Shown in pieces: positions 186-12,397 of a stretch of 12,397 bases of DNA; position 1 is the first letter of the stretch; every line of letters begins with the position of its first letter. Under the pieces are notes generated by a model that was not told the DNA's origin, ran no database searches, and was given only the letters and a program-made list of their open reading frames with translations. The position numbers and the translations under genes are program-made. Source of the stretch: Verrucomicrobiaceae bacterium (GTDB lineage Bacteria > Verrucomicrobiota > Verrucomicrobiae > Verrucomicrobiales > Akkermansiaceae); contig RPOS01000091.1 in the NCBI GenBank assembly GCA_003820635.1, positions 1 through 12,397 of the forward strand, read 5' to 3'.

Positions 186-1385
186 TCATGTCATCTGCCC
201 CCTTTTTTGCCTTTTGCGAATGGGCTTTTTGAGGTTCTTCGCGAATTGGCGGGGGCCGTGGCCGGTGGCGCGGACCAAGGCGCGGGCCAGATGCTTGAGC
301 CCGGAATAGCCACAGACCGCGGCAACATCGGTGGCGTTGTGTTCGCCCGTGGCGAGCATCGCCATGGCTCTTTCCATGCGCACACGGGCAATTTCCTCGC
401 TCACGTGTCGTCCGACGAGACGGTGAAAGACGAGTCCCAGCCCACGGCGCGACATGCCGGCTGCGGCTGCGGCATCGGCGACGCCAATGAGCGGATTGGT
501 GTGGTGGTCGAGGATGAAACGCAAGGCTTTGGCCACGCCCAGATGCTCCACGGCAAGGATGTCACTGCTGCGGCGGGTGACCACGCCGCGGCAGGGGACT
601 CGCACCGGCCGGCGGGGCGCCTTCCTGCCGTCCATCAGTTGATCGAGCAGCCTGGCGCCTTGATAGGCGACTTCCTCGAGATTCAAGTCCACGCTGGTCA
701 GCGGCACCGAGGCAAGGGGACAGATCAATTCGTCGTTGTCGCAGCCCACCACCGCCGCCTCTTCAGGCACCAGAATGTTCGCCATCGAACAGGCATCGAG
801 AATGTCCACCGCGAAATCGTCGTTGGTGCAAAACACGGCGAAGGGTTTCGGTATGGTCCGAAGCCGGCCCGCAAGCCAATCGGCGCATTGATAGATGGAT
901 GATGCCTGACTGGCCTTTACCGCGTTCCTGCCATCCAAGACCTTCATCCGATGGCCATGCGCAGCCAGTGTGGCGCGAAATCCGTCGAGGCGCTCACGGC
1001 TGGCGAAGTGTCCCCGCACGTCGGGCGCGGCAAATACGAACTGTTTGAATCCCCGTTCCAAGAGGTGCCGGGCGGCCATTTGCCCGGCGGTGACGTTGTC
1101 CGACAGCACGCGCGGCAGGTCGAGCGATTTGACCTGCCACTGCAGGTCCACGACCGGTTTGTCGATCTTGCGCACGAGGGCGGTCAATTCCGGTTGGCCA
1201 TACAGGCAACAGACGACGCCATCGATGGAATGGAGCGAGGGACGGTGGCCGATGTGGACCGAATGGTTGTCCAGAATCCAGCCGGCGTCGCGCGCATACC
1301 GGGCGATGCCGCTGTGTGAGGCATGATTGTACCAGCCCATAAGCATTGCCACGCGTCTTTTTGGGGATTGTCTCGCTGTTTTCAT
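186..1385 (-). CDS. XylR-like regulator: LacI-type sensor + AraC HTH
   Basis: This is a predicted 399-residue cytoplasmic transcription factor that senses a sugar and binds DNA. Residues about 10-275 form a LacI/periplasmic-binding-protein-type effector domain. Its hallmarks are the SDNVTAGQMAARHLLERGF region (95-113), VFCTNDDFAVDIL (184-196) and the VGCDNDELICP-to-SVDLN segment (213-235). Residues about 285-385 are a C-terminal AraC-family domain with two helix-turn-helix units, near 300-322 and 352-374, ending GHGPRQF. Length and domain order match E. coli XylR (about 392 aa). The frame stays open to 1490, but the ATG at 1385 (MKTARQSPKRR) fits the XylR start; a longer start would run into the divergent gene. 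No SD is evident. The lysine/arginine-rich tail (383-396) is unusual. It probably controls the divergent URO-D gene and perhaps the minus-strand operon; the effector is unknown. Confidence 0.92.
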   Translation of the reverse strand: MKTARQSPKRRVAMLMGWYNHASHSGIARYARDAGWILDNHSVHIGHRPSLHSIDGVVCCLYGQPELTALVRKIDKPVVDLQWQVKSLDLPRVLSDNVTAGQMAARHLLERGFKQFVFAAPDVRGHFASRERLDGFRATLAAHGHRMKVLDGRNAVKASQASSIYQCADWLAGRLRTIPKPFAVFCTNDDFAVDILDACSMANILVPEEAAVVGCDNDELICPLASVPLTSVDLNLEEVAYQGARLLDQLMDGRKAPRRPVRVPCRGVVTRRSSDILAVEHLGVAKALRFILDHHTNPLIGVADAAAAAGMSRRGLGLVFHRLVGRHVSEEIARVRMERAMAMLATGEHNATDVAAVCGYSGLKHLARALVRATGHGPRQFAKNLKKPIRKRQKRGQMT

Positions 1386-1461
1386 GACTGCGCAAAATGT
1401 GCTGTTTTCAGGAACAGAATAGCCATTGCGGGAAGATCGGCGCAAGCATAACAATCCCTCC
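1386..1461. promoter_or_regulatory. Divergent promoter/operator region
   Basis: This 76-bp gap separates the divergent starts of the regulator and URO-D protein 1, so both promoters and the regulator's operator should lie here. Two imperfect dyads are visible. One is CTGTT-N6-AACAG at 1402-1417. The other is TTGCG-N10-CGCAA at 1426-1445. A further CGCAA lies at 1391-1395, so GCGCAA occurs twice as a direct repeat (1390-1395 and 1440-1445) spaced 50 bp, near five helical turns. XylR-family proteins typically bind paired half-sites. No convincing -35/-10 pair stands out. The assignment rests on position plus symmetry. Confidence 0.4.
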
Positions 1462-2484
1462 ATGGCTTCAACCAAACGCGATGTGATCAAAACAGTCCTC
1501 TCCGGGGGAAAGCCGTCCTATGTTCCATGGTCGTACCGGTTCACTTTGGAATCGCAGGAATTGCTCTGCAATCATTTCGGCTGTGACGAGGAGTCCCTCA
1601 TCGAGCATACGGGCTGCCACATTGTCGAACTGAACAGCGCCATTGGGGTCTTCGACGATCTTGGCAACGACAAATGCCGGGATTTGTTCGGGGTCGTCTG
1701 GGATCGCAGCATGGACAAGGACATCGGAATGCCCGCGGAGCAGCTGATCAAGGAATACAGCGATCTGGAAAAGGTCAGATTTCCCGACCCGCGCGATCCG
1801 CGGGTCTTTGAAGACATTGAGCGGAAGATCGCCCGCTACCCGGACCGGTTCCGCCTGTTTGACCTTGGATTCTCGCTCTTCGAGCGCGCCTGGACCATGC
1901 GTTCGATGGAGGATCTGCTCATCGACATCATCGAAGAGCCGGATTTCGTTCACGACCTGCTCGGGCGCATCGCGGAATACAACATCGCTCACATCACCGA
2001 GGCGTTGAAGTATGATATCGACGCCGTGATTTTCGGCGACGACTGGGGGCAGCAGCAGGGATTGATCATGGGTTACGACAAGTGGCGGGAGTTCATATAT
2101 CCTCATATCAAGCGCATGTATGCCCTCGTGCGCGACGCGGGGAAGTTTCAGTTCATTCATTCCTGCGGGGATGTGGACGAGCTTTTTGACGACCTGATCG
2201 GGATCGGGCTGAATTGCTTCAACCCCTTTCAGCCGGAGGTCATGAACGTCGAGGAGATACATGCCAGGTATCATTCCAGGCTGACATTCTGGGGCGGGCT
2301 TTCCACCCAGCAAACCCTCCCTTACAAGGACGCGGATGCAGTGCGCGAGGAGAGCGGGCGGCTCCTGGCCATGGGGCGCAGCGGCGGCTACATCTTTTCC
2401 CCAGCGCACGCGGTCGAGGGGGATGTGCCTCTGGAAAACATGCTGGCTTTTGTGGATGCGGCCAAACGCCAGCCCGGCGCATGA
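1462..2484 (+). CDS. URO-D family protein 1, altered metal site
   Basis: This is a 340-residue TIM-barrel protein of the uroporphyrinogen decarboxylase superfamily. The superfamily includes true HemE and methylcobamide-dependent methyltransferases (MtaA, MtbA, CmuA). Family signs are an N-terminal RDV/R-K-PSYVPW segment, the [13 protein letters not shown] stretch (191-203), the HSCGD motif (233-237), and GG-x-I-F-S-P near the end (308-314). In MtaA-type enzymes H-x-C plus a later Cys bind zinc. Here H233 and C235 are present, but the later position reads PAHAV, so His316 sits where Cys is expected. It is not classical HemE: the FARG-type N-terminal porphyrin motif is absent and it lies in a catabolic context. 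The frame also allows a TTG start at 1426, but ATG 1462 gives the usual family N-terminus and leaves the operator region free. The leader is C-rich with no SD. The exact reaction is unknown. Confidence 0.88.
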
Positions 2485-2812: not shown

Positions 2813-3275
2813 CTACAGCGTGTCATATTGTCCAAACTCCTGCGCGGCACGGACGAGGGCGTGAATGTTTTCCGGCGGGGTGCTGGCGGGAATGGCGCAG
2901 CCTGCGTTCAGGATGAAATGCCCGCCGGGCTTCCACACGCCGATCCGATTGCCCGCCGCTTCCTGGACTTGCCCCGCCGTGCCGCGCGCGATGACGCCGC
3001 TGGGATCAATGTTCTCGAAAGCACGTGTCTTGCGCCGGCAGTTTTCTTGGCAAGGGCCATGTCCGTCTTGTAGTCCAACTCAAATCCGCAGAAGTCATAC
3101 CCGGCAAGCGAATCCACGATGCGCGTGGTGTCTCCGCAGATGTGGATGGCCGTGAAAATTTCTTCTGCCGCCAGTTCCTTGACGAGGCGTTCCTCGTAGG
3201 GACGCGAAAATTTCTCAAACATCGCGGGCGAGACCTCGTCCGGGCTATTCAGGGAAATCACATCTATCTGAATCT
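2813..3275 (-). pseudogene. URO-D family protein 3, truncated and frameshifted
   Basis: This is the C-terminal part, about 150 codons, of a third URO-D-family gene; the usual family length is about 340. Homology starts near VISLNSPDEVSP and runs through the metal motif AIHICGD, then ELDYKTDMALAKKTAGARHV. Near base 3017 one nucleotide is missing from the gene strand. Reading in the next frame restores ENIDPSGVIARGTAGQV, then GHFILNAGCAIPAS (the third zinc Cys), then PPENIHALVRAAQEFGQY, with a TAG at 2813-2815. It closely resembles URO-D protein 2, which ends PAENIHALVEAAKKYGNY. The N-terminal half is absent: the Rieske gene begins where it should be, and the Rieske stop codon (3264-3266) lies inside the remnant's first codons. 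It is therefore a rearranged, non-functional copy. A sequencing error could explain the frameshift but not the truncation. Confidence 0.88.
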
Positions 3276-3617
3276 CAGATAAACCCGCCCAGAGTCGATA
3301 CGCACCGGATAGACACGAATGTCGGTTTTTGCCGGGCGACGCAGAGCCTTCCCGGTGGGAATATGGAACCGGGCGTTGTGCTTGGGGCATTCGATGGTGT
3401 CGCCATCGACCAGCCCCATACAGAGCCGAACTGCTTCATGTGAGCAGAGTCCGTCGGTGGCATGGATCTGGCCATTTAGCTTGTAGAGTGCGACGATTCG
3501 GTCCTCCAAGACGCGTTCGAGGATATCCTCCTCTGGAACGTCGGCCGCTGGTCCCGCATCCACCCATTCGTTTTTTTCCTGGTTCATATTTTCCTGGTTC
3601 ATATTTTTCTGGTTCAT
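3264..3617 (-). CDS. Rieske-type [2Fe-2S] ferredoxin, MocE-like
   Basis: This is a 117-residue soluble electron carrier with a Rieske [2Fe-2S] centre. The first ligand pair is C58-S-H60 in DGLCSHE. The second is C77-P-K-H80 in ECPKHNARFHIPTG. The chain ends with the expected beta strands (IRVYPVRIDSGRVYL). Size and the lack of any other domain fit bacterial Rieske ferredoxins such as MocE rather than an oxygenase alpha subunit. It starts 10 nt after the desaturase stop codon and is almost certainly that enzyme's electron donor. A dedicated reductase is not in the window. Residues 1-15 (MNQKNMNQENMNQEK) are a threefold 5-residue repeat giving three in-frame ATG codons (3617, 3602, 3587). The first has the best SD. 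The last codons run into URO-D 3 remnant sequence, so the C-terminus may have been set by a recombination joint. Confidence 0.93.
   Translation of the reverse strand: MNQKNMNQENMNQEKNEWVDAGPAADVPEEDILERVLEDRIVALYKLNGQIHATDGLCSHEAVRLCMGLVDGDTIECPKHNARFHIPTGKALRRPAKTDIRVYPVRIDSGRVYLRFR
3573..3617 (-). repeat. Three tandem 15-bp units at the MocE-like start
   Basis: The gene strand carries three consecutive copies of ATGAACCAGGAAAAT (3603-3617, 3588-3602, 3573-3587), with one change in the first copy (CAGAAA) and one at the end of the third. Because 15 is a multiple of three, changes in copy number keep the frame. Each unit supplies a new ATG, and its purine-rich CCAGGAAAAT tail forms a plausible though closely spaced ribosome site for the next ATG. 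This is visible directly; any effect on expression is inference. Confidence 0.9.
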
Positions 3618-3623
3618 AAAAAG

Positions 3624-3629
3624 CACCTT
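3624..3629 (-). promoter_or_regulatory. Ribosome binding site of the Rieske gene
   Basis: AAGGTG on the gene strand lies 6 nt before the ATG at 3617 and shares its first two bases with the TAA stop of the desaturase gene (3628-3630). This is the only clear Shine-Dalgarno-like element among the genes in the window. Its overlap with the upstream stop points to translational coupling of the desaturase and its ferredoxin. It also favours ATG 3617 over the two downstream in-frame ATGs. Confidence 0.7.
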
Positions 3630-4614
3630 AATCCATTTCCGGAAGAATCCGGCGGATGGTCGCGCCGAAGTCATTGCGCTGTTTGAAAAGAACGACGATC
3701 AACTCCCCCAAGGCCCCCAGCAGACCATGATAGGGCTTGGGCAACTGGGCCTGAATGCGTTGGTTGAGAGCCGGCAAAGCGTGGAAGGGGACCAGCGGAT
3801 ACATGTGATGTTCGATATGCTTTTCCATGTTCATCAGCAGGAAGCTGGTGAACGGATTCAGCTTGAACGAGCGGCAGTTAAGCCGGTGATCCCAGACGTT
3901 TTCCTCCAAACCGGCATGCTGGAGGACGATGAAGGTCCAGATCAAGAACCCACCGTAAAACCGGGGCAGGCCGAAGAGGAGGACGGGCAACCAACTTTCT
4001 AATCCGATGGCCAAGCCGATTGCGATGAGGTGGGGCAGCAACGCCGCCCGTGCGCTCCAGAACATTCTCTGGTAATCTTCTTCCGGCACGTACGCCCCGG
4101 CCTTCTTGCTGACGATCCCCAGGGAATGGAGGACGAGATTCGTCATCGCCAAGGGGCCGTTCCACAGATAGAAGAAGTCGAGGAAAAAGGCCCAGAGGTT
4201 CGGCGGCCTTTGGGCCGGGATTTCAGGGTCAACCTCCTTTTGGATGGTGAATGAGTGATGGCGTGAGTGGCTATAGCGGAAATCCACCATGTCCCGGAGT
4301 TCCATGGACCCGCAGAACCAGTAGAAGAATTCATTGAGCCAGCCGGTTTTGAACGGCGTCCCGTGACTGCATTCGTGCCAGCGGGGATTGTTTCCGGTAT
4401 AGATCACTCCGTAAATCAGAAAAACAGGGAGCGACCACCAGCTCGGAAACAACCAACAGGCCAATGCGCCCACGGCCACCAAAAGGGCCAGCCAAAGGCC
4501 GAAATATACAAAAGCGTGCCAGTTATCCCGCTTAAGGAACGTTTTAAATTCACTCCGAGGGATCTCGCTGGTGTACCACTCTTCGATTTTGATTTTTTCT
4601 TCGGGGATGATCAT
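3628..4614 (-). CDS. Membrane di-iron desaturase/hydroxylase, MocD-like
   Basis: This is a 328-residue integral membrane protein of the fatty-acid-desaturase/alkane-hydroxylase superfamily, which uses a histidine-ligated di-iron centre to activate O2. The three His boxes are intact: HECSH (80-84), HSRHH (116-120) and HIEHH (266-270), with an extra conserved-looking QHAG (H233). Hydrophobic segments at about 34-56, 60-75, 143-165 and 190-230 place the boxes on the cytoplasmic side in the usual topology. Next to a stand-alone Rieske ferredoxin this matches the MocD/MocE arrangement of rhizopine O-demethylation, which suggests a hydroxylase or O-demethylase acting on a small methoxy compound. 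Lipid desaturation is the main alternative and cannot be excluded from sequence alone. There is no SD before the ATG; the upstream 35 bp are strikingly AT-rich. Family call secure, substrate uncertain. Confidence 0.92.
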   Translation of the reverse strand: MIIPEEKIKIEEWYTSEIPRSEFKTFLKRDNWHAFVYFGLWLALLVAVGALACWLFPSWWSLPVFLIYGVIYTGNNPRWHECSHGTPFKTGWLNEFFYWFCGSMELRDMVDFRYSHSRHHSFTIQKEVDPEIPAQRPPNLWAFFLDFFYLWNGPLAMTNLVLHSLGIVSKKAGAYVPEEDYQRMFWSARAALLPHLIAIGLAIGLESWLPVLLFGLPRFYGGFLIWTFIVLQHAGLEENVWDHRLNCRSFKLNPFTSFLLMNMEKHIEHHMYPLVPFHALPALNQRIQAQLPKPYHGLLGALGELIVVLFKQRNDFGATIRRILPEMD

Positions 4615-4650
4615 AAAACCAATATTAGTTATTAATTGCTAGGGTATTGC
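4615..4650 (-). promoter_or_regulatory. AT-rich leader, possible promoter of the desaturase pair
   Basis: The 35 bp just upstream of the desaturase ATG are mostly A and T (gene strand contains AATTAATAACTAATATTGG) in an otherwise GC-rich window. TAATAT about 8 nt before the ATG could be a -10 hexamer, which would give a very short leader, but no clear -35 partner is seen. The alternative is an unstructured leader that helps initiation without an SD. This would let the desaturase/Rieske pair be expressed separately from the genes upstream. Confidence 0.3.
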
Positions 4651-4823
4651 TTTTGGGGTGCAGGCCGTTGAGAGGGCAGAATCAGGATGCTTCTTATCTT
4701 CATGGTTTCATTCGTGGCTTTTTCGGCCGTTTGCGATATGCCGCCCCACGCGAAGCAGCACATCATGGCAAGAACGGTTCCCATTTTTCCGAAGGCCGGT
4801 CCTATGGATGAAATCCGAGTCAT
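4632..4823 (-). pseudogene. Short ORF with signal-peptide-like start, probable remnant
   Basis: A 63-codon frame starts at an ATG at 4823, begins MTRISSIGPAFGKMG, and is followed by a hydrophobic stretch (TVLAMMCCFAWGGIS, residues 16-30) that looks like the core of a secretion signal with a possible cleavage site before QTAEKA. After that it degenerates, ending with a stop beside the AT-rich desaturase leader. It matches no complete family. The first 10 codons lie in a 72-bp segment repeated at 6125-6196. The simplest reading is the 5' end of a lost exported protein. A genuine small exported peptide or pure chance are the alternatives. Confidence 0.35.
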
Positions 4824-4863
4824 GCGGTTGATGTGGAAGCATTCGTTTATGGGGCTTGCCGGA
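4792..4863 (-). repeat. 72-bp diverged repeat, copy A
   Basis: Aligned without gaps to 6125-6196, this segment is identical at 52 of 72 positions by my hand count. The best blocks are CCTATGGATG, the GTTGAT region and GAAGCATT on the plus strand. It sits directly after the stop codon of URO-D protein 2 (4864-4866). Similarity ends sharply on both sides. Mismatches show no excess at third codon positions in either frame that has a shared ATG, so it is not obviously conserved protein code. Confidence 0.6.
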
Positions 4864-5892
4864 TCAGTAATTGCCATATTTTTTCGCTGCCTCGACCAGC
4901 GCGTGGATATTCTCGGCGGGGACATTTGGTGCGAGGGCGCAACCGGAGCCGAGGATGAATCCGCTATCCGGTTTCCAAATGGCCATCAGCTCCTTGCAAG
5001 CGGCGTCAACCTCCTCGGGTTTTCCAAAGGCCATCAGGCCGGTATCAATCGCCCCCAGCAAACAGGTCTTGCCCCGGGCCGCCGCCTTGATTTTGCGGGG
5101 CTCGGTTTTGTGATCGACTTCCAGCACTGAAGCGCCTGTGGCAATGAAATCCTCGGTAATAAGGCCGGTATTGCCGCAGATATGATTGTGAAGGAAGATG
5201 CCGTGGGCCTTGAGTTCATCCACCATCTTCTTTTCGTGTCTCCAAGGATATTGCTTGTAGTGACGCGGCGAGAGCAAATCGGGGCCGGCAACCGGCTCGC
5301 CAATGGAGGTGGAATGACCGCCGCATTCAATCAGGGCAAAAGCATAGCGGGTGGCCACCCGACGCGCATAATCCAGGAGCGCATGGATACCCTCCTCCTC
5401 TTCGCCGGTGGCGATATCCATCATCAATTCATCCATTCCGCGAATCTGGGCCGCAAGATCCATAGGGCCTTGGTCGGCGCGCGCACAAATCCAGACCCGG
5501 TTGCCGAGTTCCTTGGAAAGAATCCGGGTGGCTTTGAGGATCTCGCACATCGGGAAGGCTTTGTAAGGATCGGGAACTTCCAGGTTGGCGACCTCCTCCA
5601 GGGAGTCGATCAGGGGTTTGTCTGCCACGGGGGCCGTGTCGTCGCGGTAAACCACTTCCAAGCCACAGGCCTGGGCACTGCAGGCGGTCCCGTTTTCAAG
5701 CAAGATCATGTCCTGCTTGAACTCCCGCCAGGAGGCCAGCATGGCCTCGGCAAGCAATTCCCCGTTCTTGAATACCTCACTCATTGGCAAGCCGGTGGCG
5801 TAGGCCGCCTGTTGAAAATTGTGAAGATCAACCGGAACCCGGTCGGGCTGTTGCAGGTTGATGGCGGCTCTGACTCGTTCGATGGATGTCAT
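4864..5892 (-). CDS. URO-D family methyltransferase-like protein 2
   Basis: This is a 342-residue TIM-barrel protein of the uroporphyrinogen decarboxylase superfamily. It starts with the typical MTSIERVRAAINLQQPDRVPVD. The zinc site of the methylcobamide-dependent branch (MtaA, MtbA, CmuA) looks complete: H237-I-C239-G in LHNHICGNT, and C318 in LGSGCALAPNVP, with the normal spacing of about 79 residues. The stretch ECGGHSTSIGEPVAGPDLLSP (189-209) is also family-like. This suggests transfer of a methyl group between a corrinoid protein and a thiol-type acceptor rather than haem synthesis. No corrinoid-binding protein is visible in the window, so the partner must be elsewhere. The leader is C-rich with no SD. 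About 260 bp of degenerate sequence separate it from the DUF5107 gene upstream. It is the intact relative of the truncated copy at 2813-3275. Exact substrate unknown. Confidence 0.9.
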   Translation of the reverse strand: MTSIERVRAAINLQQPDRVPVDLHNFQQAAYATGLPMSEVFKNGELLAEAMLASWREFKQDMILLENGTACSAQACGLEVVYRDDTAPVADKPLIDSLEEVANLEVPDPYKAFPMCEILKATRILSKELGNRVWICARADQGPMDLAAQIRGMDELMMDIATGEEEEGIHALLDYARRVATRYAFALIECGGHSTSIGEPVAGPDLLSPRHYKQYPWRHEKKMVDELKAHGIFLHNHICGNTGLITEDFIATGASVLEVDHKTEPRKIKAAARGKTCLLGAIDTGLMAFGKPEEVDAACKELMAIWKPDSGFILGSGCALAPNVPAENIHALVEAAKKYGNY

Positions 5893-5907
5893 GGGATGGG
5901 GTGGAGG

Positions 5908-6174
5908 TTAGTTGGAAAATCGAATAGAAATCTGCCCTGGCTGTTTTGAGTCGTGCGTCATTGTTTTCGCAAGGGACGGTTCTGTTCTCTTGGGACCAGT
6001 CCTCCCGAGGTGGCGGTCGAAAAAAGCGGAAATCGGTTCCATGTTCGCCGGAGTATGAAATTCAGCATCACCGTGGGCCGCGCCAAGAATCGTTGGCAAC
6101 GCGCTCTCCACGCCCGCTTCCCGCAAGACCGGCCCTATGGATGTAAGCGGCATCATGGAGTTGATAAAGAAGCA
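5908..6174 (-). pseudogene. C-terminal remnant of an alpha/beta-hydrolase (esterase)
   Basis: After a TAA at 6175-6177 the frame reads CFFINSMMPLTSIGP, then REAGVESALPTILGAAHGD and AEFHTPANMEPISAFFDRHLG. The latter part looks like the end of an acetylxylan-esterase/BD-FAE-type alpha/beta-hydrolase: L-x-x-A-G-V, then a strand, then G-A-x-H-G with the catalytic His, then a final helix with FFDRHL. The nucleophile and most of the fold are missing, so it cannot be active. The first 17 codons belong to the 72-bp repeat (6125-6196), and the hydrolase-like part begins where the repeat ends. It is a family-level guess from about 40 residues. Confidence 0.5.
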
Positions 6175-6196
6175 TTATTGCGCGGGGCCTGGCGGA
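6125..6196 (-). repeat. 72-bp diverged repeat, copy B
   Basis: This is the partner of 4792-4863 (52 of 72 identical, ungapped). It overlaps the last 12-13 codons and the stop codon of the DUF5107-TPR gene, so that protein's tail QAPRNNASLSTP is encoded inside the repeat. Its other end abuts the alpha/beta-hydrolase remnant. The short GGCCC/GGGCC inversion present here is not kept in copy A, so a conserved hairpin is unlikely. Confidence 0.6.
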
Positions 6197-8183
6197 AATC
6201 CAGGTGCGGCGGCACCGGCAGGAGGAGGGACTTACGATGAATCTCATCGGTCACTTCACTGTTTTCATCCCGAGCGATCTGCTTCGCCTTGAGTTCATAC
6301 CATAAGTCGGAAAGCGAAACCTCCCCCTCCTGGATGTCAGCAACCTCAAGATTCTTCAGCAGTTCTTCAGCCAAGGACAACCGACCCGCTCGCACGGCGG
6401 CCCGGGACATGATTAGTCTGGACCGCCCGAGGGCGGCGATGGCGGGTGGGATCTCCTCGAACAAATCCAGCGCGCGTGCATCGTGCCCGTCGGCAATGAG
6501 GCTTTGCAGGCATTCGAAGGCCAGCGGCGCGAGGTCGGGGTTCAACGCGCGCGCTTCGAGGTAGAGTCTGGCGGCCTCGCTGGAGCGCCCCTCCCGAGTG
6601 GCAAGGAGGGCGAGGTTGCGAAGCGTGATGTAATGGAGGCGTTGCTGCAGTGATTCCTGCCATGCTTCCTGCGCCCCGCTCAGATCCCCCCGGTGATAGC
6701 GGATGACACCGAGATGCAATGATGCGAGCCAGGAAACATCGGCACTTTTTTCGAGCATGAGCACCCATTCGTCCTGGATCATCCACGAGACTGGTTCGTC
6801 AACCTCGGGAAACGACCCCTTATCCAGTAACGAAATCCATGGAGACTGCTCCTCAGAAAGGGTTTCTTCATCAAAGACGATGCCCGAGCCACGGACGAGC
6901 GGCGGCTCTCCCTGGCGTTCACGGCGCAAGCGTTCCAGCGCCCCCCATCCCGAACCATTTTGAATGATCCTTTCCGGAGCTTTGGAAAAGAACTCCCGAT
7001 TGGAAGCCAGCATTTTTTCCAGATCAGCCGCCGGAAGCCGCCGCTCCAACTCGGCCGCCACCGCGCCGGTGGCCGCCTGCCAATCACAGCCATGGACTGT
7101 CTGTGAATCCGCCTCCATCAACCCGTAGGCTTCCAGCCATTCGATCTCAGAAAAGGCGGCCATGGGGAACGACTCGTATTGCGTGGGCGAAACACCAGCC
7201 TGAATCTCGAGGTATTTGGCATCACCCTCGGTCAGGAATTTCTGCCATTGGTTGCCTCCGGTGCTTTCCCCCCAAACAAACAGCTTCCTTCCCCGCTGGG
7301 CGCGCGTGGAGGTTTGGATGAGCCCGCTGCCATCCGCATCCAGCGCTGTCACCCAAGGCCGGGATGTTTCGGGCACCATGAAAAAGTAGTCATTGGAAGT
7401 CCTGCTCCGGGACCCATAGGTCACATCGACCCCGTCGTGGAGCGGGATCGGAATGCAACGAAGCCCGTCATTGTATGCGTTATTGAGCGCCCGCGCGGCG
7501 GGTGCCAGCACCCGCACATCCGGCGACACCGGCACGGCGATGTTCGACCACCAATACATCGGAAGTTCATGCGCATGGGGGTTGGAAATGGCGACGCGAA
7601 CCATCAGCCATGGCGAGTCGGGAGGGAGAAGAAAATCTAGCCGGTAAGTGACGGCTCTGATGCGTTCAAATTCCCAAAGCCGCAGCACGGGCCAGCCCTC
7701 CGGGTGCGTGAGTTCCGCCGCAAAGAGCGGATCGCATCCGAGGGGCGTATGCCCGCGCACGCCGCAGTTCCACTCGACTCCGCCGCTGAACCAGGCGTTG
7801 CGGATGGCGAGATTGGCCGGCTGAAACACGGGATTCACCGTGACCAGATCCCGGCCAGATCGCTTGTCAAGGAGCGACCAGAGTCTCCCGCCCCGCTCCA
7901 GCAGGATGGTGGCTTTGAGGTAATCATTTTCGAGGATGGCGGTTTTGAATGGTCGGACCTGACGATCGCGAGTGTATCCGTCCTGCACCAGATAAGGCAG
8001 AGCCGGGTCCGCGACATCGGCGCTGACGCCATAGCCGAGATACTTGCGGCTCTCAACGGGCACGCTTTCGTAAACCGTCAGGGGCTTGCTCTCCCCCGTG
8101 GAGCGGCTTAACTGGGGCAATGGGTTTTGGGGTCCCAGATCCGCGGCGGGAATGAGCTGATCAGTGATGGTGAGGCTTGTCAT
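6153..8183 (-). CDS. DUF5107 domain protein with C-terminal TPRs
   Basis: This is a 676-residue predicted cytoplasmic protein. Residues about 70-345 match the DUF5107 beta-sandwich: AILENDYLKATILLERGGR (82-100), LLDKRSGRDLV (104-114), NPVFQPANL (117-125), WFSGGVEWN (131-139) and GHTPL (144-148). This fold resembles aldose-epimerase-like and glycosidase beta-supersandwich domains. Residues about 480-640 are helical TPR-like repeats (SWLASLHLGVIRYHRGDLSGAQEAWQESL, then SEAARLYLEARALNPDLAPLAF). Full-length DUF5107-TPR proteins are often near 1,100 residues, so this is a short form. There is no signal peptide. It starts 5 nt after the GH95 stop, so it is in that operon, and probably helps process the same sugar; the reaction is not established. 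The final residues after HLDFR come from a repeat, which may mean that the original stop was lost. Confidence 0.85.
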   Translation of the reverse strand: MTSLTITDQLIPAADLGPQNPLPQLSRSTGESKPLTVYESVPVESRKYLGYGVSADVADPALPYLVQDGYTRDRQVRPFKTAILENDYLKATILLERGGRLWSLLDKRSGRDLVTVNPVFQPANLAIRNAWFSGGVEWNCGVRGHTPLGCDPLFAAELTHPEGWPVLRLWEFERIRAVTYRLDFLLPPDSPWLMVRVAISNPHAHELPMYWWSNIAVPVSPDVRVLAPAARALNNAYNDGLRCIPIPLHDGVDVTYGSRSRTSNDYFFMVPETSRPWVTALDADGSGLIQTSTRAQRGRKLFVWGESTGGNQWQKFLTEGDAKYLEIQAGVSPTQYESFPMAAFSEIEWLEAYGLMEADSQTVHGCDWQAATGAVAAELERRLPAADLEKMLASNREFFSKAPERIIQNGSGWGALERLRRERQGEPPLVRGSGIVFDEETLSEEQSPWISLLDKGSFPEVDEPVSWMIQDEWVLMLEKSADVSWLASLHLGVIRYHRGDLSGAQEAWQESLQQRLHYITLRNLALLATREGRSSEAARLYLEARALNPDLAPLAFECLQSLIADGHDARALDLFEEIPPAIAALGRSRLIMSRAAVRAGRLSLAEELLKNLEVADIQEGEVSLSDLWYELKAKQIARDENSEVTDEIHRKSLLLPVPPHLDFRQAPRNNASLSTP

Positions 8184-8188
8184 CGTTT

Positions 8189-10444
8189 TCAGGATATGCA
8201 GGTGGTATCGGAAATTCTTTTGAATCTCTGTTGGAAGGGCTTGAGGCAGTATTCCGCGCCGGCGCAGGTCTCAAACTCGAGTATCGCCCCCTTCACCTTC
8301 ACGGTGCGGGACGACGTGATTGCAACGGCCTTTCCCGGCCAGGGATTGGCGATCCGGCAGCAGCCGCCGACGGTGCTGTGGATCGCAATGCTATCAGGGG
8401 TTCCTCCTTCCGAAATTTCCGCGGAAGCCAGAAAGCCTCCCTCGGTGCGCAACCGCTCGAACGATGCGGAGATTCCCACCGGCAGCGAATAACCGACATG
8501 GATGATGCCATTGATGGTTTGAAGCAGCATCTCATTGACGGCCTGAACCGCGGCGAAATTACCTTCGAGTGTGAAGGGGCGGTATTTGTAAACCGAGTAA
8601 CCGAGGTTTTTGAAATCGCCGTTCAAATGGAAGCCGTTCGGCGAAACGAAGGCGTCGAGATAGCGCTCGAGCATCGAGATCGCAGTCTGTCCGAGGCCAA
8701 CCCGGGCGCAAAGCCCCGCATACCAGGAGAAGCTGTAGCCCACCCATTCGCCGGTCCCCAGCAGGTCGACCTGGTGGAGACTGTCGGCGATGAGTTCCTT
8801 CTCTCTGCCGCCATTGTCCGGATGCAGCAGGTTGAGCGGATAGATGCCCATCAGATGCGCATGATGGCGGTGCGAGCGGTCCAGCGGCATGCCGGGAGCG
8901 ATGCCGAGCACTTCACCGCGGATCAAGCCGTCGGGCGAAGGGATGTGGGACAGTGCGGGCGAACCCAATGATTCAGCACATCGCTTCCACTTGGTGCTCT
9001 CCGACTTTTGTCCCAGCGCCATGCTCATTTCCTCAAGATCGTTGAAGAGCTTTAGCATGAGGAAGTGGTCGTAGTTCGTATTGGCAGGAAGATATGAACG
9101 CGGTGTGTTGTCGTAGATCTCGGCAGAACTCGACATCGGAAGCAACAGACGCCCGGTGGCAGGTTCGGGCTTGAGGTGATGAAGCAGAAATTCCGCCTGA
9201 GCTAGACAGAACGGGTAGGCGCGCTCGCGCAGAAACGTCTCGTCGCTGGTGTATTTCCAATGCCGGTGGAACATCTCCGCCACCCACGCACCATTGGTGA
9301 GATTGAAGCTGTAAGGTGCCCACCCGCTGATCAACTCTCCCGCCAACGACATGGCGCATGGAATGAACGCGCCGGGAGCCTTGAAGAAACGCGCCGCCAA
9401 CTCACGATGCTTCGGCAGGATCTTCCACATGTGCTCAAGGAAGACCAAACCCTCGTCGATCCGGTTGTTGGAAAGGTAGGAGATGTAGCAGAATTGGGTG
9501 TTCAGGTTGTGGTGAAAGTCCCCGCGCCATGGCGGCAGATTTCCATCATCCGCTGTCCAGACACCCTGGAGCGGCATCGGGGGTGTCCCGGTGCGGGAAG
9601 AGCTGCCCAGAAAATACTGCCCGAGCTGATAGTGCTGGTTGATATTCTTGTGCGAGATTTGGACCCGTGACTTCGACCAGTAATCCTTCCACCACCGGGA
9701 GCTCGCGCGCTTGATGCCGGCATATCCCTTCTCGGCGCAGGCCTCGACCAATCCGCAGGCCTCAGTGACCATCATCTCAGGATCCCCGAGGCCGGTCACG
9801 CAGGTGTAGATTTCCATGTTTCCCCGATCTTGGCGCACCCGGGTGGCCGTGACCGTGGCTTGCCCCCCGGTCACAGGTTGAATGCAGTAATCAGCATTCT
9901 CGCGCGTGCCATGCTCGGCGGGGGGATAATCGAGCGCACTGAGGCTATTGGCGGCAGGGTTTGCCCCGGCGCATCCCCGGTAGTCGGGATAGTCCAACCG
10001 ATAGGTCGGCTTCAGACCGGTGGTCTTGATCACAAGGAGCGGCCGGGACTCGTCGCAGACGACGGCAACCTGTCCTTTGCGCGAAAAGATCACGGCTTCC
10101 CCAGTCGAGATATCGAGTTCGGCCTTGGTCCATGCGTCATTCTTCGGAAGACTCAGAATCAGGCGGCACGCGCGCAGCTTGGTCGGCCACGGGTCGTTGC
10201 CGGGGGACTCGAACCGTTCGCTCAATGCATCCCATTTTTTTTCGCGAATCATCCTGAGCATCTCCGCGAAGTTCCAATCCTTGCTGGCGTAAGCATCTGG
10301 AATCCTCTCGTCCCAGAGCGTCGCCTGATCGAGCGAAAGGACGATTTCGCGGGTATCCCCCCAGATGATCGAGCCGAGCAAGCCGTTGCCAATGGGAATG
10401 CCTTCATCCCAGCGTGATATTGGAAAGTTATAGATAAGTTTCAT
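8189..10444 (-). CDS. GH95-type glycosidase (alpha-L-fucosidase/galactosidase-like)
   Basis: This is a 751-residue protein with glycoside hydrolase family 95 architecture. The N-terminal beta domain opens directly with NFPISRWDEGIPIGNGLLGS (6-25) and LDQATLWDERIP (38-49). The (alpha/alpha)6 catalytic domain has GDFHHNLNTQF (308-318), PMSSSAEIYDN (436-446), RSHRHHAHLMGIYPL (523-537) and PFTLEGNFAAVQAVNEMLLQ (623-642). By comparison with the characterised Bifidobacterium AfcA, N313/N315 and E442 match the catalytic Asn pair and general acid. The usual Asp in F-Q-I-D-G-N-F is Glu here (E627). GH95 enzymes cleave terminal alpha-L-fucose or alpha-L-galactose by inversion. The frame is open to 10600, but ATG 10444 gives the family N-terminus and follows the MFS stop by 14 nt. 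There is no signal peptide, so it acts in the cytoplasm on an imported substrate. Specificity is uncertain because the protein is divergent. Confidence 0.82.
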   Translation of the reverse strand: MKLIYNFPISRWDEGIPIGNGLLGSIIWGDTREIVLSLDQATLWDERIPDAYASKDWNFAEMLRMIREKKWDALSERFESPGNDPWPTKLRACRLILSLPKNDAWTKAELDISTGEAVIFSRKGQVAVVCDESRPLLVIKTTGLKPTYRLDYPDYRGCAGANPAANSLSALDYPPAEHGTRENADYCIQPVTGGQATVTATRVRQDRGNMEIYTCVTGLGDPEMMVTEACGLVEACAEKGYAGIKRASSRWWKDYWSKSRVQISHKNINQHYQLGQYFLGSSSRTGTPPMPLQGVWTADDGNLPPWRGDFHHNLNTQFCYISYLSNNRIDEGLVFLEHMWKILPKHRELAARFFKAPGAFIPCAMSLAGELISGWAPYSFNLTNGAWVAEMFHRHWKYTSDETFLRERAYPFCLAQAEFLLHHLKPEPATGRLLLPMSSSAEIYDNTPRSYLPANTNYDHFLMLKLFNDLEEMSMALGQKSESTKWKRCAESLGSPALSHIPSPDGLIRGEVLGIAPGMPLDRSHRHHAHLMGIYPLNLLHPDNGGREKELIADSLHQVDLLGTGEWVGYSFSWYAGLCARVGLGQTAISMLERYLDAFVSPNGFHLNGDFKNLGYSVYKYRPFTLEGNFAAVQAVNEMLLQTINGIIHVGYSLPVGISASFERLRTEGGFLASAEISEGGTPDSIAIHSTVGGCCRIANPWPGKAVAITSSRTVKVKGAILEFETCAGAEYCLKPFQQRFKRISDTTCIS

Positions 10445-10458
10445 GGAGTGGTCGTTGT

Positions 10459-11883
10459 TCAAGGCAAGTCGGATGCGGCATGTTCTGGTGTGGGCGGCTG
10501 GTAGCCTGCAGGGCCGCCGTATCGATGCCAACCACGCCATGTGAAAAACCATGGGATCAGCGTCAGGGTGAAGAATACGCCCTGCCACGCCAGCAGCCAA
10601 CGGTAGTCACCGACCATATCGATGAACCATCCGCACAGCGCATTGCCCAAGACGATGCCGACACTTGAAATCATCGCGTTGGCCGAGCTGAACTGGCCGA
10701 AGCGGTCGGACGGGAATAGCGCGATGAACATCGGCATCATCGCCGTGGTGAAGGCGAGAAACCCTGTCTGATAGACGAGTGAAAAGACCAGGAGGGAGGT
10801 GGCGTCATGCACGGCAAAAAATCCGACCGCACCACCCAAGGCCATGATGATTACCCCCACGGCGATCATCCTCACCCCGTGGATTCTATCCACCCAGTAG
10901 CCGAACACGAGGGCCAGCGGGATAGTTGCCAGCGTGCCCCACGCGTTGATTTTTCCGATGGCATCCAGCGTCAGGCCCAAGTCATCTCGGGAGAAGAAGA
11001 TCATCAGCGTATTGGCAGAATTGGCGAACCAGCAGACGGTCGTGATCAGGAAAATCCACAGGTAGAAGGGCGAGTGGAAACACTCCTTGACGTAGGTCTT
11101 GACCCATCCCGTGATGCGTCCTCCGGGCAGGCGCTTCGGAGGCGGCGCGTATTGCCCTTCCCGGATTTTCCAGCACATGAGAAGGAAGGAGACAAGGTAG
11201 AGGAGACCGATGCCGACATAGATCGAGCGCATGTGCGTTTCGGCCAGGCCGAAAATCCACCGCCCCCAGACAAACAAAGCCAACTGGCTGACGATCCGCG
11301 TCAACCCGAGAAACCGTCCCATGACCGGCGTGGGCACCACGTCTGCAAACAAGTAATAGTACACCGACCCTACGAAGAGGTTGAAGAACTGGTATGCCAC
11401 GACGAAGACGCAGACCAGCACCAGAATCACGGCGTTGGACGCCCAGCCCATGGCCTTCACCAAACCGGTGCCGGCCAACCAGCCGCCGATGTCAGTCGAG
11501 AAGCCAATGAGGATCAAAAACAAGGTGATGAACGGCGTAGGCCAGAGCAGGAATGGAATGCGCCGTCCACGCGGCCCCCGGTGACGGTCGCTGATTGTGG
11601 AGATGAAAGGATTCATCACCACGTTGATTGCGGTAGGAAGACTGGCGGTCACGAAGCCGATCAGGATATTGCTCGCGCCGATCCCTTTGAGGCTGATGGG
11701 CAGCAACTGCGGCATGACCGACACCATCAGCGTGAGCGTGAAATCTCCCCACAGCAGCCAGAAGATCAGCCAACCCAATTGCTTCCGGTTATAGGAAAGC
11801 GTCCCCACCGTCCATCTTCCGGACACGGGTTGTGGCTCCGTAGGCGACGGGGGAGGAGACTCGGCAGGTGAATGGGCGGGCAT
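10459..11883 (-). CDS. MFS sugar/glycoside:cation symporter-like transporter
   Basis: This is a 474-residue inner-membrane carrier with about 12 hydrophobic segments. It has a Pro/Ser-rich cytoplasmic N-terminus (about 25 residues). The loop 2-3 signature N-P-F-I-S-T-I-S-DRHRGPRGRRIPFL resembles the D-R-x-G-R-R motif of sucrose/glycoside (SLC45/GPH-type) symporters. A matching loop FGYWVDRIHGVRM lies between the later helices. A TTG at 11901 is in frame, but ATG 11883 (MPAHSPAESPP) is the more likely start; neither has an SD. It follows the DUF4091 gene by 27 nt and precedes the GH95 gene by 14 nt, so it probably imports the glycoside that the GH95 protein cleaves. The substrate cannot be read from the sequence. 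C-terminal region GWHRYGGPAGYQPP is ordinary. Confidence 0.9.
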   Translation of the reverse strand: MPAHSPAESPPPSPTEPQPVSGRWTVGTLSYNRKQLGWLIFWLLWGDFTLTLMVSVMPQLLPISLKGIGASNILIGFVTASLPTAINVVMNPFISTISDRHRGPRGRRIPFLLWPTPFITLFLILIGFSTDIGGWLAGTGLVKAMGWASNAVILVLVCVFVVAYQFFNLFVGSVYYYLFADVVPTPVMGRFLGLTRIVSQLALFVWGRWIFGLAETHMRSIYVGIGLLYLVSFLLMCWKIREGQYAPPPKRLPGGRITGWVKTYVKECFHSPFYLWIFLITTVCWFANSANTLMIFFSRDDLGLTLDAIGKINAWGTLATIPLALVFGYWVDRIHGVRMIAVGVIIMALGGAVGFFAVHDATSLLVFSLVYQTGFLAFTTAMMPMFIALFPSDRFGQFSSANAMISSVGIVLGNALCGWFIDMVGDYRWLLAWQGVFFTLTLIPWFFTWRGWHRYGGPAGYQPPTPEHAASDLP

Positions 11884-11910
11884 TTGGATTTCGGGCTTCA
11901 ATCCGATCCG

Positions 11911-12397
11911 TTAGGGTTTTGCAGCGTTCTCCTTTGAACCGTTTTCCTGGGTAAGCAGTCCAGCGATATGTCGTCTGAGATCGGCAAAATCGGCGGGGTC
12001 TCGCGAGTAGTCATACGGTGCCGAGACCAGTGTCCCCAGGGAAAGCAGGCCCTTGGCTATTTCCTGTTTGTCGGCAGGGAGTGCAGGCAACCGCTGCTCC
12101 AACAGCTTGAGATATTCGTAATCCTCCATGCCGTCGCGCCAGTTTGACAAGCGGATGGAAGGCCAGAATTTCCCTCCCGTTCCGGGGTAACACAAATGAC
12201 CTTCGCCCGGTTTGTAATACCAGCCCTTCATCGACCAAGGGCGCGCGGGCCAGCGGGGGCCGTCCTGCGGATATGAGTTGTCGTCGTTGAAGAGAGTTGC
12301 CGCCCAATTCAGCACGCCGTCCATTTTGAATTTGTAGCTCAGAAGCGGAATCATCCTTGGCGCTGCATTTGCGCTCTGGACCGCCCAGTTCGGATAG
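11911..12397 (-). CDS. DUF4091 domain protein, C-terminal end (5' cut by window)
   Basis: Only the last 161 codons are present; the frame remains open to the window edge (YPNWAVQSANAAPRM precedes the first internal ATG). The fragment shows the end of a DUF4091 region: LLSYKFKMDGVLNWAAT, then a tryptophan-rich WPARPWSMKGWYY, then GEGHLCYPG, and the hallmark PSIRLSNWRDGMEDYEYLKLLE. DUF4091 is found at the C-terminus of predicted glycoside hydrolases of the TIM-barrel type in polysaccharide-degrading bacteria; few have tested activities. It is the most upstream visible member of the operon, 27 nt from the MFS gene. Whether it is exported cannot be judged because the N-terminus is missing. Confidence 0.82.
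   Translation of the reverse strand, partial: YPNWAVQSANAAPRMIPLLSYKFKMDGVLNWAATLFNDDNSYPQDGPRWPARPWSMKGWYYKPGEGHLCYPGTGGKFWPSIRLSNWRDGMEDYEYLKLLEQRLPALPADKQEIAKGLLSLGTLVSAPYDYSRDPADFADLRRHIAGLLTQENGSKENAAKP

What the first reader, a model, noticed from the sequence alone, without database searches (positions are those of the whole stretch)
2813..12397. Possible catabolic island for an O-methylated glycoside with two kinds of demethylation chemistry
Seen: a GH95-type glycosidase, an MFS symporter, DUF5107 and DUF4091 proteins on the same strand as a MocD-like di-iron enzyme, its Rieske ferredoxin and URO-D-family proteins. Two of the URO-D members keep the H-x-C...C zinc site of corrinoid methyltransferases. 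Known: MocD/MocE take part in breakdown of the O-methylated inosamine rhizopine, and MtaA/CmuA-type URO-D proteins move methyl groups. Inference: after import and hydrolysis, a methyl ether on the released sugar or cyclitol is removed by oxygenase chemistry, with methyl transfer as a second route. I know of no described sugar O-demethylation system with this composition.
Basis: partly seen in the sequence, partly recalled or inferred. Interest (0 to 1): 0.7.

Follow-up and report, generated by a model that had tools for sequence, protein, structure and literature searches.

The report
Sugar demethylation island, two enzyme types
This stretch of DNA from an uncultured bacterium looks like a sugar-breakdown gene set that pairs an oxygen-using enzyme likely to cut methyl groups off sugars with relatives of oxygen-free methyl-transfer enzymes; the pairing recurs in other bacteria but has not been tested in the laboratory.

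Summary
The genes named are present, with corrections. One of the two zinc-site URO-D members (2813-3264) is a broken fragment; the DUF4091-type gene is cut by the contig end; a further URO-D (1462-2484, +) and a XylR-like regulator belong to the island. The window holds no recognised ferredoxin reductase, corrinoid protein or activase.

Comparative genomics partly supports the inference. Of 57 MocD-type loci in genomes with URO-D paralogues, 19 have a URO-D within 3 kb (0.92 expected). Rhamnose mutarotase lies within 5 kb in 9 of 69 genomes (0.45 expected). Four clusters combine MocD-type genes, URO-Ds and a corrinoid protein with RACo, MtaB or a pterin-binding protein (L027, L155, L191, L194/L195). 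I favour oxidative removal of a sugar O-methyl group, with URO-D/corrinoid methyl transfer as an oxygen-independent second route.

Against: orthologues of URO-D-A lack a nearby MocD gene at 34 of 41 places; GH95, DUF5107 and the MFS gene hardly recur beside MocD; the window has no rhamnose gene; no substrate or activity is known.

The parts
186..1490 (-). XylR-like regulator: sugar-binding (Peripla_BP_3) domain plus AraC-type HTH
   Evidence: Pfam
1462..2484 (+). URO-D-A, non-zinc type (HSCG, no second Cys); orthologue of URO-Ds beside MocD-type genes in L003-L005, L114, L115 and L137 (59-62% identity)
2813..3264 (-). URO-D-C relic: zinc-site type, N-terminal part missing, frame broken near 3030
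3264..3674 (-). Rieske [2Fe-2S] protein, MocE-like (true start possibly near 3615)
3628..4614 (-). MocD-like membrane di-iron oxygenase/desaturase
4864..5892 (-). URO-D-B, zinc-site type (HICG...GC), MtaA/CmuA-like
6153..8183 (-). DUF5107 protein with a weak C-terminal TPR match
8189..10600 (-). GH95-type glycosidase (probable start near 10444)
10459..11901 (-). MFS sugar transporter-type protein
11911..12396 (-). C-terminal part of a GH123/DUF4091-type protein, cut by the contig end

Best explanation
The island takes up and hydrolyses a glycan carrying an O-methylated sugar, most likely a deoxy sugar, and removes the methyl ether. Step 1 (inferred from families): GH95 and GH123-type enzymes release the sugar, the MFS protein imports it, the XylR-like protein senses it. 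Step 2 (inferred by analogy to MocDEF and to P450 demethylation of 6-O-methylgalactose): the MocD-like di-iron enzyme, fed electrons by the Rieske protein and a reductase encoded elsewhere, hydroxylates the O-CH3 carbon, and the product falls apart to free sugar and formaldehyde. Step 3 (inferred): the URO-D proteins give an oxygen-independent second route, the non-zinc URO-D-A as substrate:corrinoid methyltransferase and the zinc-type URO-D-B as methyl-corrinoid:acceptor methyltransferase, with a corrinoid protein encoded elsewhere. Shown: gene content, active-site motifs, and recurrent linkage of the oxygenase with URO-D, RhaM and, in four clusters, a corrinoid protein with partner enzymes. 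Not shown: substrate, activity, co-expression.
For: URO-D within 3 kb of the oxygenase in 19 of 57 loci, 0.92 expected; nearest URO-D on the same strand in 18 of 19; URO-D density falls from 5.7 to 0.4 per 100 kb between 0-1 kb and beyond 3 kb. RhaM within 5 kb in 9 of 69 genomes, 0.45 expected. L027, L155, L191 and L194/L195 hold MocD-type genes, URO-Ds and a corrinoid protein together with RACo, MtaB, pterin-binding or homocysteine methyltransferase-type proteins. L155 has, like the window, one zinc-type and one non-zinc URO-D. All 22 genomes searched have a corrinoid-protein frame of 211-274 aa besides or instead of longer MetH-size frames. In one search, 10 of 12 oxygenase genomes have a 212-234 aa corrinoid frame; the two without (G006, G010) have a single URO-D each. 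URO-D-B orthologue directly behind a corrinoid protein in L174.
Against: URO-D-A orthologues of 55% identity or more lie beside the oxygenase at only 7 of 41 places (against 24, 30), so the two are not obligate partners. 38 of 57 loci have no URO-D within 3 kb. The window has no recognised corrinoid protein, activase, reductase or rhamnose gene. GH95/DUF5107/MFS do not recur. The GH95 has Glu where the five structures shown have Asp. The MocE model score is below its cut-off, and so is the MtaA/CmuA score of URO-D-B (136.2 of 235.4). Oxygenase genes in a strict anaerobe (Pontiella, PMC6388578) are hard to explain.
Confidence: 0.42

Rival explanations
1. One route only: the MocD/Rieske pair demethylates the sugar oxidatively, and the URO-D proteins do something else in the same sugar pathway (handling of one-carbon units, thiol methylation, sensing, or an undescribed reaction of the fold).
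For: URO-D-A orthologues usually occur without MocD (34 of 41 places); no corrinoid partner in the window; LacI-URO-D fusions exist; URO-D-A lacks the full zinc site.
Against: Corrinoid protein, RACo, MtaB or pterin-binding proteins sit in the same cluster in L027, L155, L191, L194/L195; described UroD-family methyltransferases can lack zinc (PMC13222342, passages).
Confidence: 0.28
2. The MocD-like protein is not a demethylase: it hydroxylates or desaturates another molecule (a lipid, or a C-H bond of the sugar or cyclitol itself), and methyl transfer, if any, is by URO-D alone.
For: Pfam and fold resemble desaturases and AlkB; no substrate evidence; present in strict anaerobes.
Against: Rieske partner and Rieske/reductase fusions; sugar-gene linkage; lipid-desaturase models score far below cut-off (DesB 41.9 of 500).
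Confidence: 0.18
3. The oxygenase and URO-D genes are neighbours without a shared pathway, brought together by general clustering of catabolic genes.
For: URO-D genes are numerous in these genomes (up to the scoring limit of 28); GH95/DUF5107/MFS do not recur; one URO-D of the window is decaying.
Against: Steep fall of URO-D density with distance, same strand in 18 of 19, recurrence in Kiritimatiellales, spirochaetes, Verrucomicrobia, Bacteroidota and Anaerolineae.
Confidence: 0.12

Closest known systems
Rhizopine catabolism mocDEF (Sinorhizobium meliloti, Rhizobium leguminosarum)
   Same: Desaturase-like MocD, Rieske MocE and a reductase thought to act on an O-methylated inosamine (role recalled; gene set in PMC10107442, passages)
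   Different: No mocA/B/C/R set, inositol genes or reductase in the window; Rieske below the MocE family cut-off; URO-Ds instead
Cytochrome P450 demethylation of 6-O-methyl-D-galactose (Zobellia, Formosa)
   Same: Oxidative removal of a sugar methyl ether giving formaldehyde, inside a polysaccharide gene cluster (PMC10033563, passages)
   Different: Haem P450 with ferredoxin and reductase, not a membrane di-iron enzyme; no URO-D described in those passages
Corrinoid O-demethylases and CdmBCA of the UroD superfamily (MtvB, OdmB, VdmB, MtoB, CdmB)
   Same: UroD-fold methyltransferase with corrinoid protein, second methyltransferase and activase (PMC13222342, passages); the same parts occur in L027, L155, L191, L195
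   Different: Known substrates are methoxylated aromatics or haloalkanes; strict anaerobes; not described there with a MocD-type oxygenase
Type 1 mlp gene clusters with MtaA-like UroD proteins
   Same: MtaA-like UroD proteins outside methanogens (PMC10418091, abstract and passages)
   Different: Proposed for methyl-sulfur/selenium compounds; sugar, desaturase, RACo and DUF1638 do not occur in the held text

Membership tests
MocD/MocE rhizopine-type oxygenase | Desaturase fold with three histidine boxes | tested here: met
   Pfam PF00487; invariant His in 39 sequences; model close to AlkB 8sbb, E 9.5e-4
MocD/MocE rhizopine-type oxygenase | Partner Rieske protein over the MocE family cut-off (TIGR02377) | tested here: not met
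   Rieske protein present, but 83.5 bits against 136.15
MocD/MocE rhizopine-type oxygenase | Ferredoxin reductase and mocA/B/C/R genes beside it | tested here: not met
   None among the ten window proteins scanned; the contig ends at 12397
MocD/MocE rhizopine-type oxygenase | Demethylation of an O-methyl inosamine | not testable with these tools
   needs assay
MtaA/CmuA-type corrinoid methyltransferase (TIGR01463) | Score over the curated cut-off | tested here: not met
   URO-D-B 136.2, URO-D-A 65.2, relic 43.8, cut-off 235.4
MtaA/CmuA-type corrinoid methyltransferase (TIGR01463) | H-x-C...C zinc site | tested here: met
   URO-D-B yes; relic keeps it but is broken; URO-D-A lacks the second Cys
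Corrinoid O-demethylase system | Corrinoid protein and activase encoded together with the methyltransferase | tested here: not met
   Absent from the window proteins scanned; met in relatives L027 and L194/L195
GH95 | GH95 catalytic domain over cut-off | tested here: met
   PF22124 168.9 bits, cut-off 27
GH95 | Conserved catalytic residues | tested here: inconclusive
   N-x-N and a Glu near SAE kept, Asp of the DGN motif is Glu; the catalytic role of these residues is recalled
P450 sugar demethylase system | Cytochrome P450 | tested here: not met
   No P450 among the ten window proteins scanned

The most novel reading that the evidence does not exclude
There is a widespread, undescribed class of sugar gene clusters with two demethylases of different chemistry for the same methylated deoxy sugar: a MocD-type di-iron oxygenase for oxic conditions and a UroD/corrinoid methyltransferase system for anoxic ones, as O2-dependent FGE and O2-independent anSME coexist for sulfatase maturation. 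Many of the URO-D paralogues of Kiritimatiellota, spirochaetes, Verrucomicrobiota and Chloroflexota would then be sugar O-demethylases, and Pontiella sulfatireligans (L194/L195) would be a cultured test organism.
Probability: 0.33. Interest if true: 0.8.

Novelty: new variant of a known kind. Interest (0 to 1): 0.58.

Why it matters
O-methylated sugars are common in algal, cyanobacterial and bacterial glycans (recalled), yet the sugar O-demethylation system that I met in the papers is the P450 one for 6-O-methylgalactose. If this reading is right, it gives a use to many unassigned URO-D paralogues, an anaerobic route for sugar methyl ethers, and a link from glycan breakdown to one-carbon and B12 metabolism.

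Tried and rejected
A genome-contig scan with the single window oxygenase found nothing; with alignment A1 it worked. A viral-contig scan gave three distant loci of no use (L081-L083 are among the 146 oxygenase places, of which 22 had a URO-D within 3 kb, duplicates included). The first ORF picking recognised the oxygenase in 69 of 84 sequences, so it was redone with seed-guided ORF choice. In one search two seeds were in the wrong frame; mended.

Lipid desaturase: not my first choice because the lipid model is far below cut-off and no lipid gene was among the neighbour families I identified; most neighbours were not identified. Inositol/rhizopine as the window's substrate: such neighbours (LacI, ferredoxin reductase, ABC transporter, Gfo/Idh/MocA, SDR) come from rhizobial, Paenibacillus and other loci, not from the window's clade, apart from the ABC transporters of L001 and L002. 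A plasmid search for a named mocD reference gave 278 records; none of the 40 listed carries that name. Ten paper searches: no listing shows a paper on sugar O-demethylation by MocD-type or URO-D enzymes. This covers only open-licence PMC text, and listings were cut where many papers matched.

Limits of the counts; 98 loci, 4 duplicates removed, L056 dropped (no oxygenase ORF), 93 examined, 57 of them in genomes with more than one URO-D, 0 of the other 36 linked. Only 28 of the 80 loci entered it; one search takes 145 loci and finds the same 19 linked. URO-D counts stop at 28 scored candidates, so 0.92 is somewhat low. L003-L005, L114 and L115 are one lineage; at 60% identity the 19 linked oxygenases form six groups, the window being a seventh; 79 of 87 genomes were given to the RhaM search, 69 had listed oxygenase positions; the 21 genomes of its corrinoid test were chosen mostly for URO-D linkage. 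Searches list oxygenases only to E 1e-40 and 1e-60.
Full report
What is there. The window seems to be a complete 12397-bp metagenome contig (P0241); no genome is held for it. On the - strand, in transcription order: the C-terminal piece of a GH123/DUF4091-type protein, an MFS transporter, GH95, DUF5107, URO-D-B, the MocD-like oxygenase, the Rieske protein and URO-D-C; then URO-D-A on the + strand and a XylR-like regulator on the - strand. URO-D-C is a relic: homology begins at the Rieske stop, about residue 200 of the family, and the frame breaks near 3030. So one intact protein, URO-D-B, keeps the H-x-C...C site; URO-D-A has HSCG and no second cysteine.

The oxygenase. It has 707 homologues at E <= 0.001 (120 listed), several with a fused Rieske domain. 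Its histidine boxes are invariant in 39 sequences. The AlphaFold model (mean pLDDT 95.8) matches chains of two chloroplast FtsHi motor complexes, AlkB 8sbb (E 9.5e-4) and, below significance, SCD1; a profile search finds AlkB 8f6t (E 2.3e-4). It is therefore a membrane di-iron oxygenase or desaturase. Of 145 loci, 21 have oxygenase and Rieske domains in one shorter ORF and 52 in one ORF of 700 aa or more; Pfam finds a reductase part in the two long ones tested (L027, L155) and none in the short one tested (L005). This resembles MocDEF more than acyl-lipid desaturases (general knowledge).

Neighbourhood test. Eighty loci came from genome contigs, further ones from class-wide searches: matches in 30 of 193 genomes (E <= 1e-40), 12 of 297, 45 of 286 and 13 of 199 (E <= 1e-60). 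Recurrent neighbours, mainly in rhizobial and Paenibacillus loci, are LacI regulator, ferredoxin reductase, ribose-type ABC transporter, Gfo/Idh/MocA and SDR. In Kiritimatiellales, spirochaete, Verrucomicrobia, Prolixibacteraceae and Anaerolineae loci a URO-D is often adjacent. Of 93 loci examined, 57 lie in genomes with URO-D paralogues; 19 of these have a URO-D within 3 kb, expected 0.92. Over 145 loci the URO-D density is 5.7, 1.3, 0.4 and 0.4 per 100 kb at 0-1, 1-3, 3-6 and 6-9.5 kb, which speaks against mere clustering of catabolic genes. In the tree the window lies in a 69-member clade (support 0.996); of its 12 loci, L001, L003, L004, L005, L114, L115, L137 and L138 have a URO-D within 3 kb, L002, L134, L135 and L139 do not.

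Rhamnose link. L027 carries RhaA, RhaT and RhaM (Pfam) and a RhaB-like gene (my reading). L053 has a RhaM (as G784 contig 179) and proteins similar to RhaB and RhaA of L027. L138 has a RhaM. RhaM lies within 5 kb of an oxygenase in 9 of 69 genomes, expected 0.45. The window itself has none; its GH95 points to L-fucose or L-galactose, weakly, since the Asp of the DGN motif is Glu. A PocR sensory domain sits in the regulator beside the L005 pair; PocR is known from propanediol/B12 regulation (recalled), which would suit deoxy-sugar breakdown.

Both chemistries together. L027: URO-D, MocD-Rieske-reductase fusion, DUF1638, RACo, corrinoid protein, MtaB. L155: the same kind of fusion, a zinc-type and a non-zinc URO-D, AraC-type regulator, corrinoid protein and MtaB-like gene (the last two by similarity to L027). 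L191: URO-D, ketopantoate hydroxymethyltransferase-type gene, MocD-Rieske fusion, corrinoid protein, pterin-binding protein. L194/L195 of Pontiella sulfatireligans: homocysteine S-methyltransferase, two MocD-like genes, four URO-Ds, CobW-like, RhaM-domain protein, sodium symporter, DUF1638, RACo and corrinoid protein in about 20 kb (not all of these went to Pfam). L121 has RACo- and DUF1638-like genes beside the oxygenase. Stand-alone corrinoid proteins lie within 10 kb of an oxygenase in 4 of 21 genomes, expected 0.25, but these genomes were chosen mostly for URO-D linkage. URO-D-B is 70-76% identical to four Anaerolineae proteins; one follows a corrinoid protein (L174), one lies behind an ABC transporter set (L176), two are near Gfo/Idh/MocA-like genes (L175, L177). 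None of these four has the oxygenase beside it.

The reverse test goes partly against. URO-D-A orthologues of 55% identity or more occur at 27 places in the Pontiella class (193 genomes) and 14 in the spirochaete class (297 genomes); 5 and 2 are next to a listed oxygenase. Twenty of the other 34 were fetched; in none did the oxygenase seed match. Sodium symporter-like genes are seen in 3, ribose-type ABC permease genes in 5, PocR- or AraC-like regulators in 8, a GH95-like gene plus a further URO-D in 1 (L209). So URO-D-A belongs to sugar clusters but does not need the oxygenase. That fits an anaerobic main route with an optional oxic addition, and equally a URO-D role unrelated to demethylation.

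Oxygen. Pontiella strains F1 and F21 are described as strict anaerobes that grow on L-rhamnose and paradoxically encode O2-dependent FGEs beside an anSME (PMC6388578, passages). The MocD-like genes of F21 repeat that paradox and, by analogy only, support paired oxic and anoxic enzymes.

Known systems. MocDEF (PMC10107442, passages), P450 demethylation of 6-O-methylgalactose (PMC10033563, passages), UroD-family O-demethylases and CdmB, with and without zinc (PMC13222342, passages), mlp clusters (PMC10418091, abstract and passages). None combines the two chemistries for a sugar in what I saw.

Verdict.

Noticed in passing
L138:13068-15167 (-) and L202:1994-4072 (-): Single ORFs of about 700 aa that fuse a LacI regulator to a URO-D domain, in two spirochaete loci (Pfam).
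   Followed up: partly
L194/L195 (G004, contig 1, 303-337 kb): In the cultured strict anaerobe Pontiella sulfatireligans two MocD-like genes lie in one cluster with four URO-Ds, RACo, corrinoid protein and homocysteine S-methyltransferase.
   Followed up: partly
   Followed up: yes
L201 (G003) and L203 (G777): Corrinoid protein, RACo and DUF1638-like genes in sugar/URO-D clusters without the oxygenase, which lies elsewhere in the same genomes.
   Followed up: no
window 4864-5892: URO-D-B is unusually conserved: the 120 listed homologues are 70-99% identical and named sources include Acidobacteria, Chloroflexi and Acidimicrobiales.
   Followed up: partly
L194:12629-14035 (-): URO-D domain followed by a weak thioredoxin-like domain in one protein.
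   Followed up: no
window 5908-6156 (-): 82-aa ORF between DUF5107 and URO-D-B without a Pfam match.
   Followed up: no
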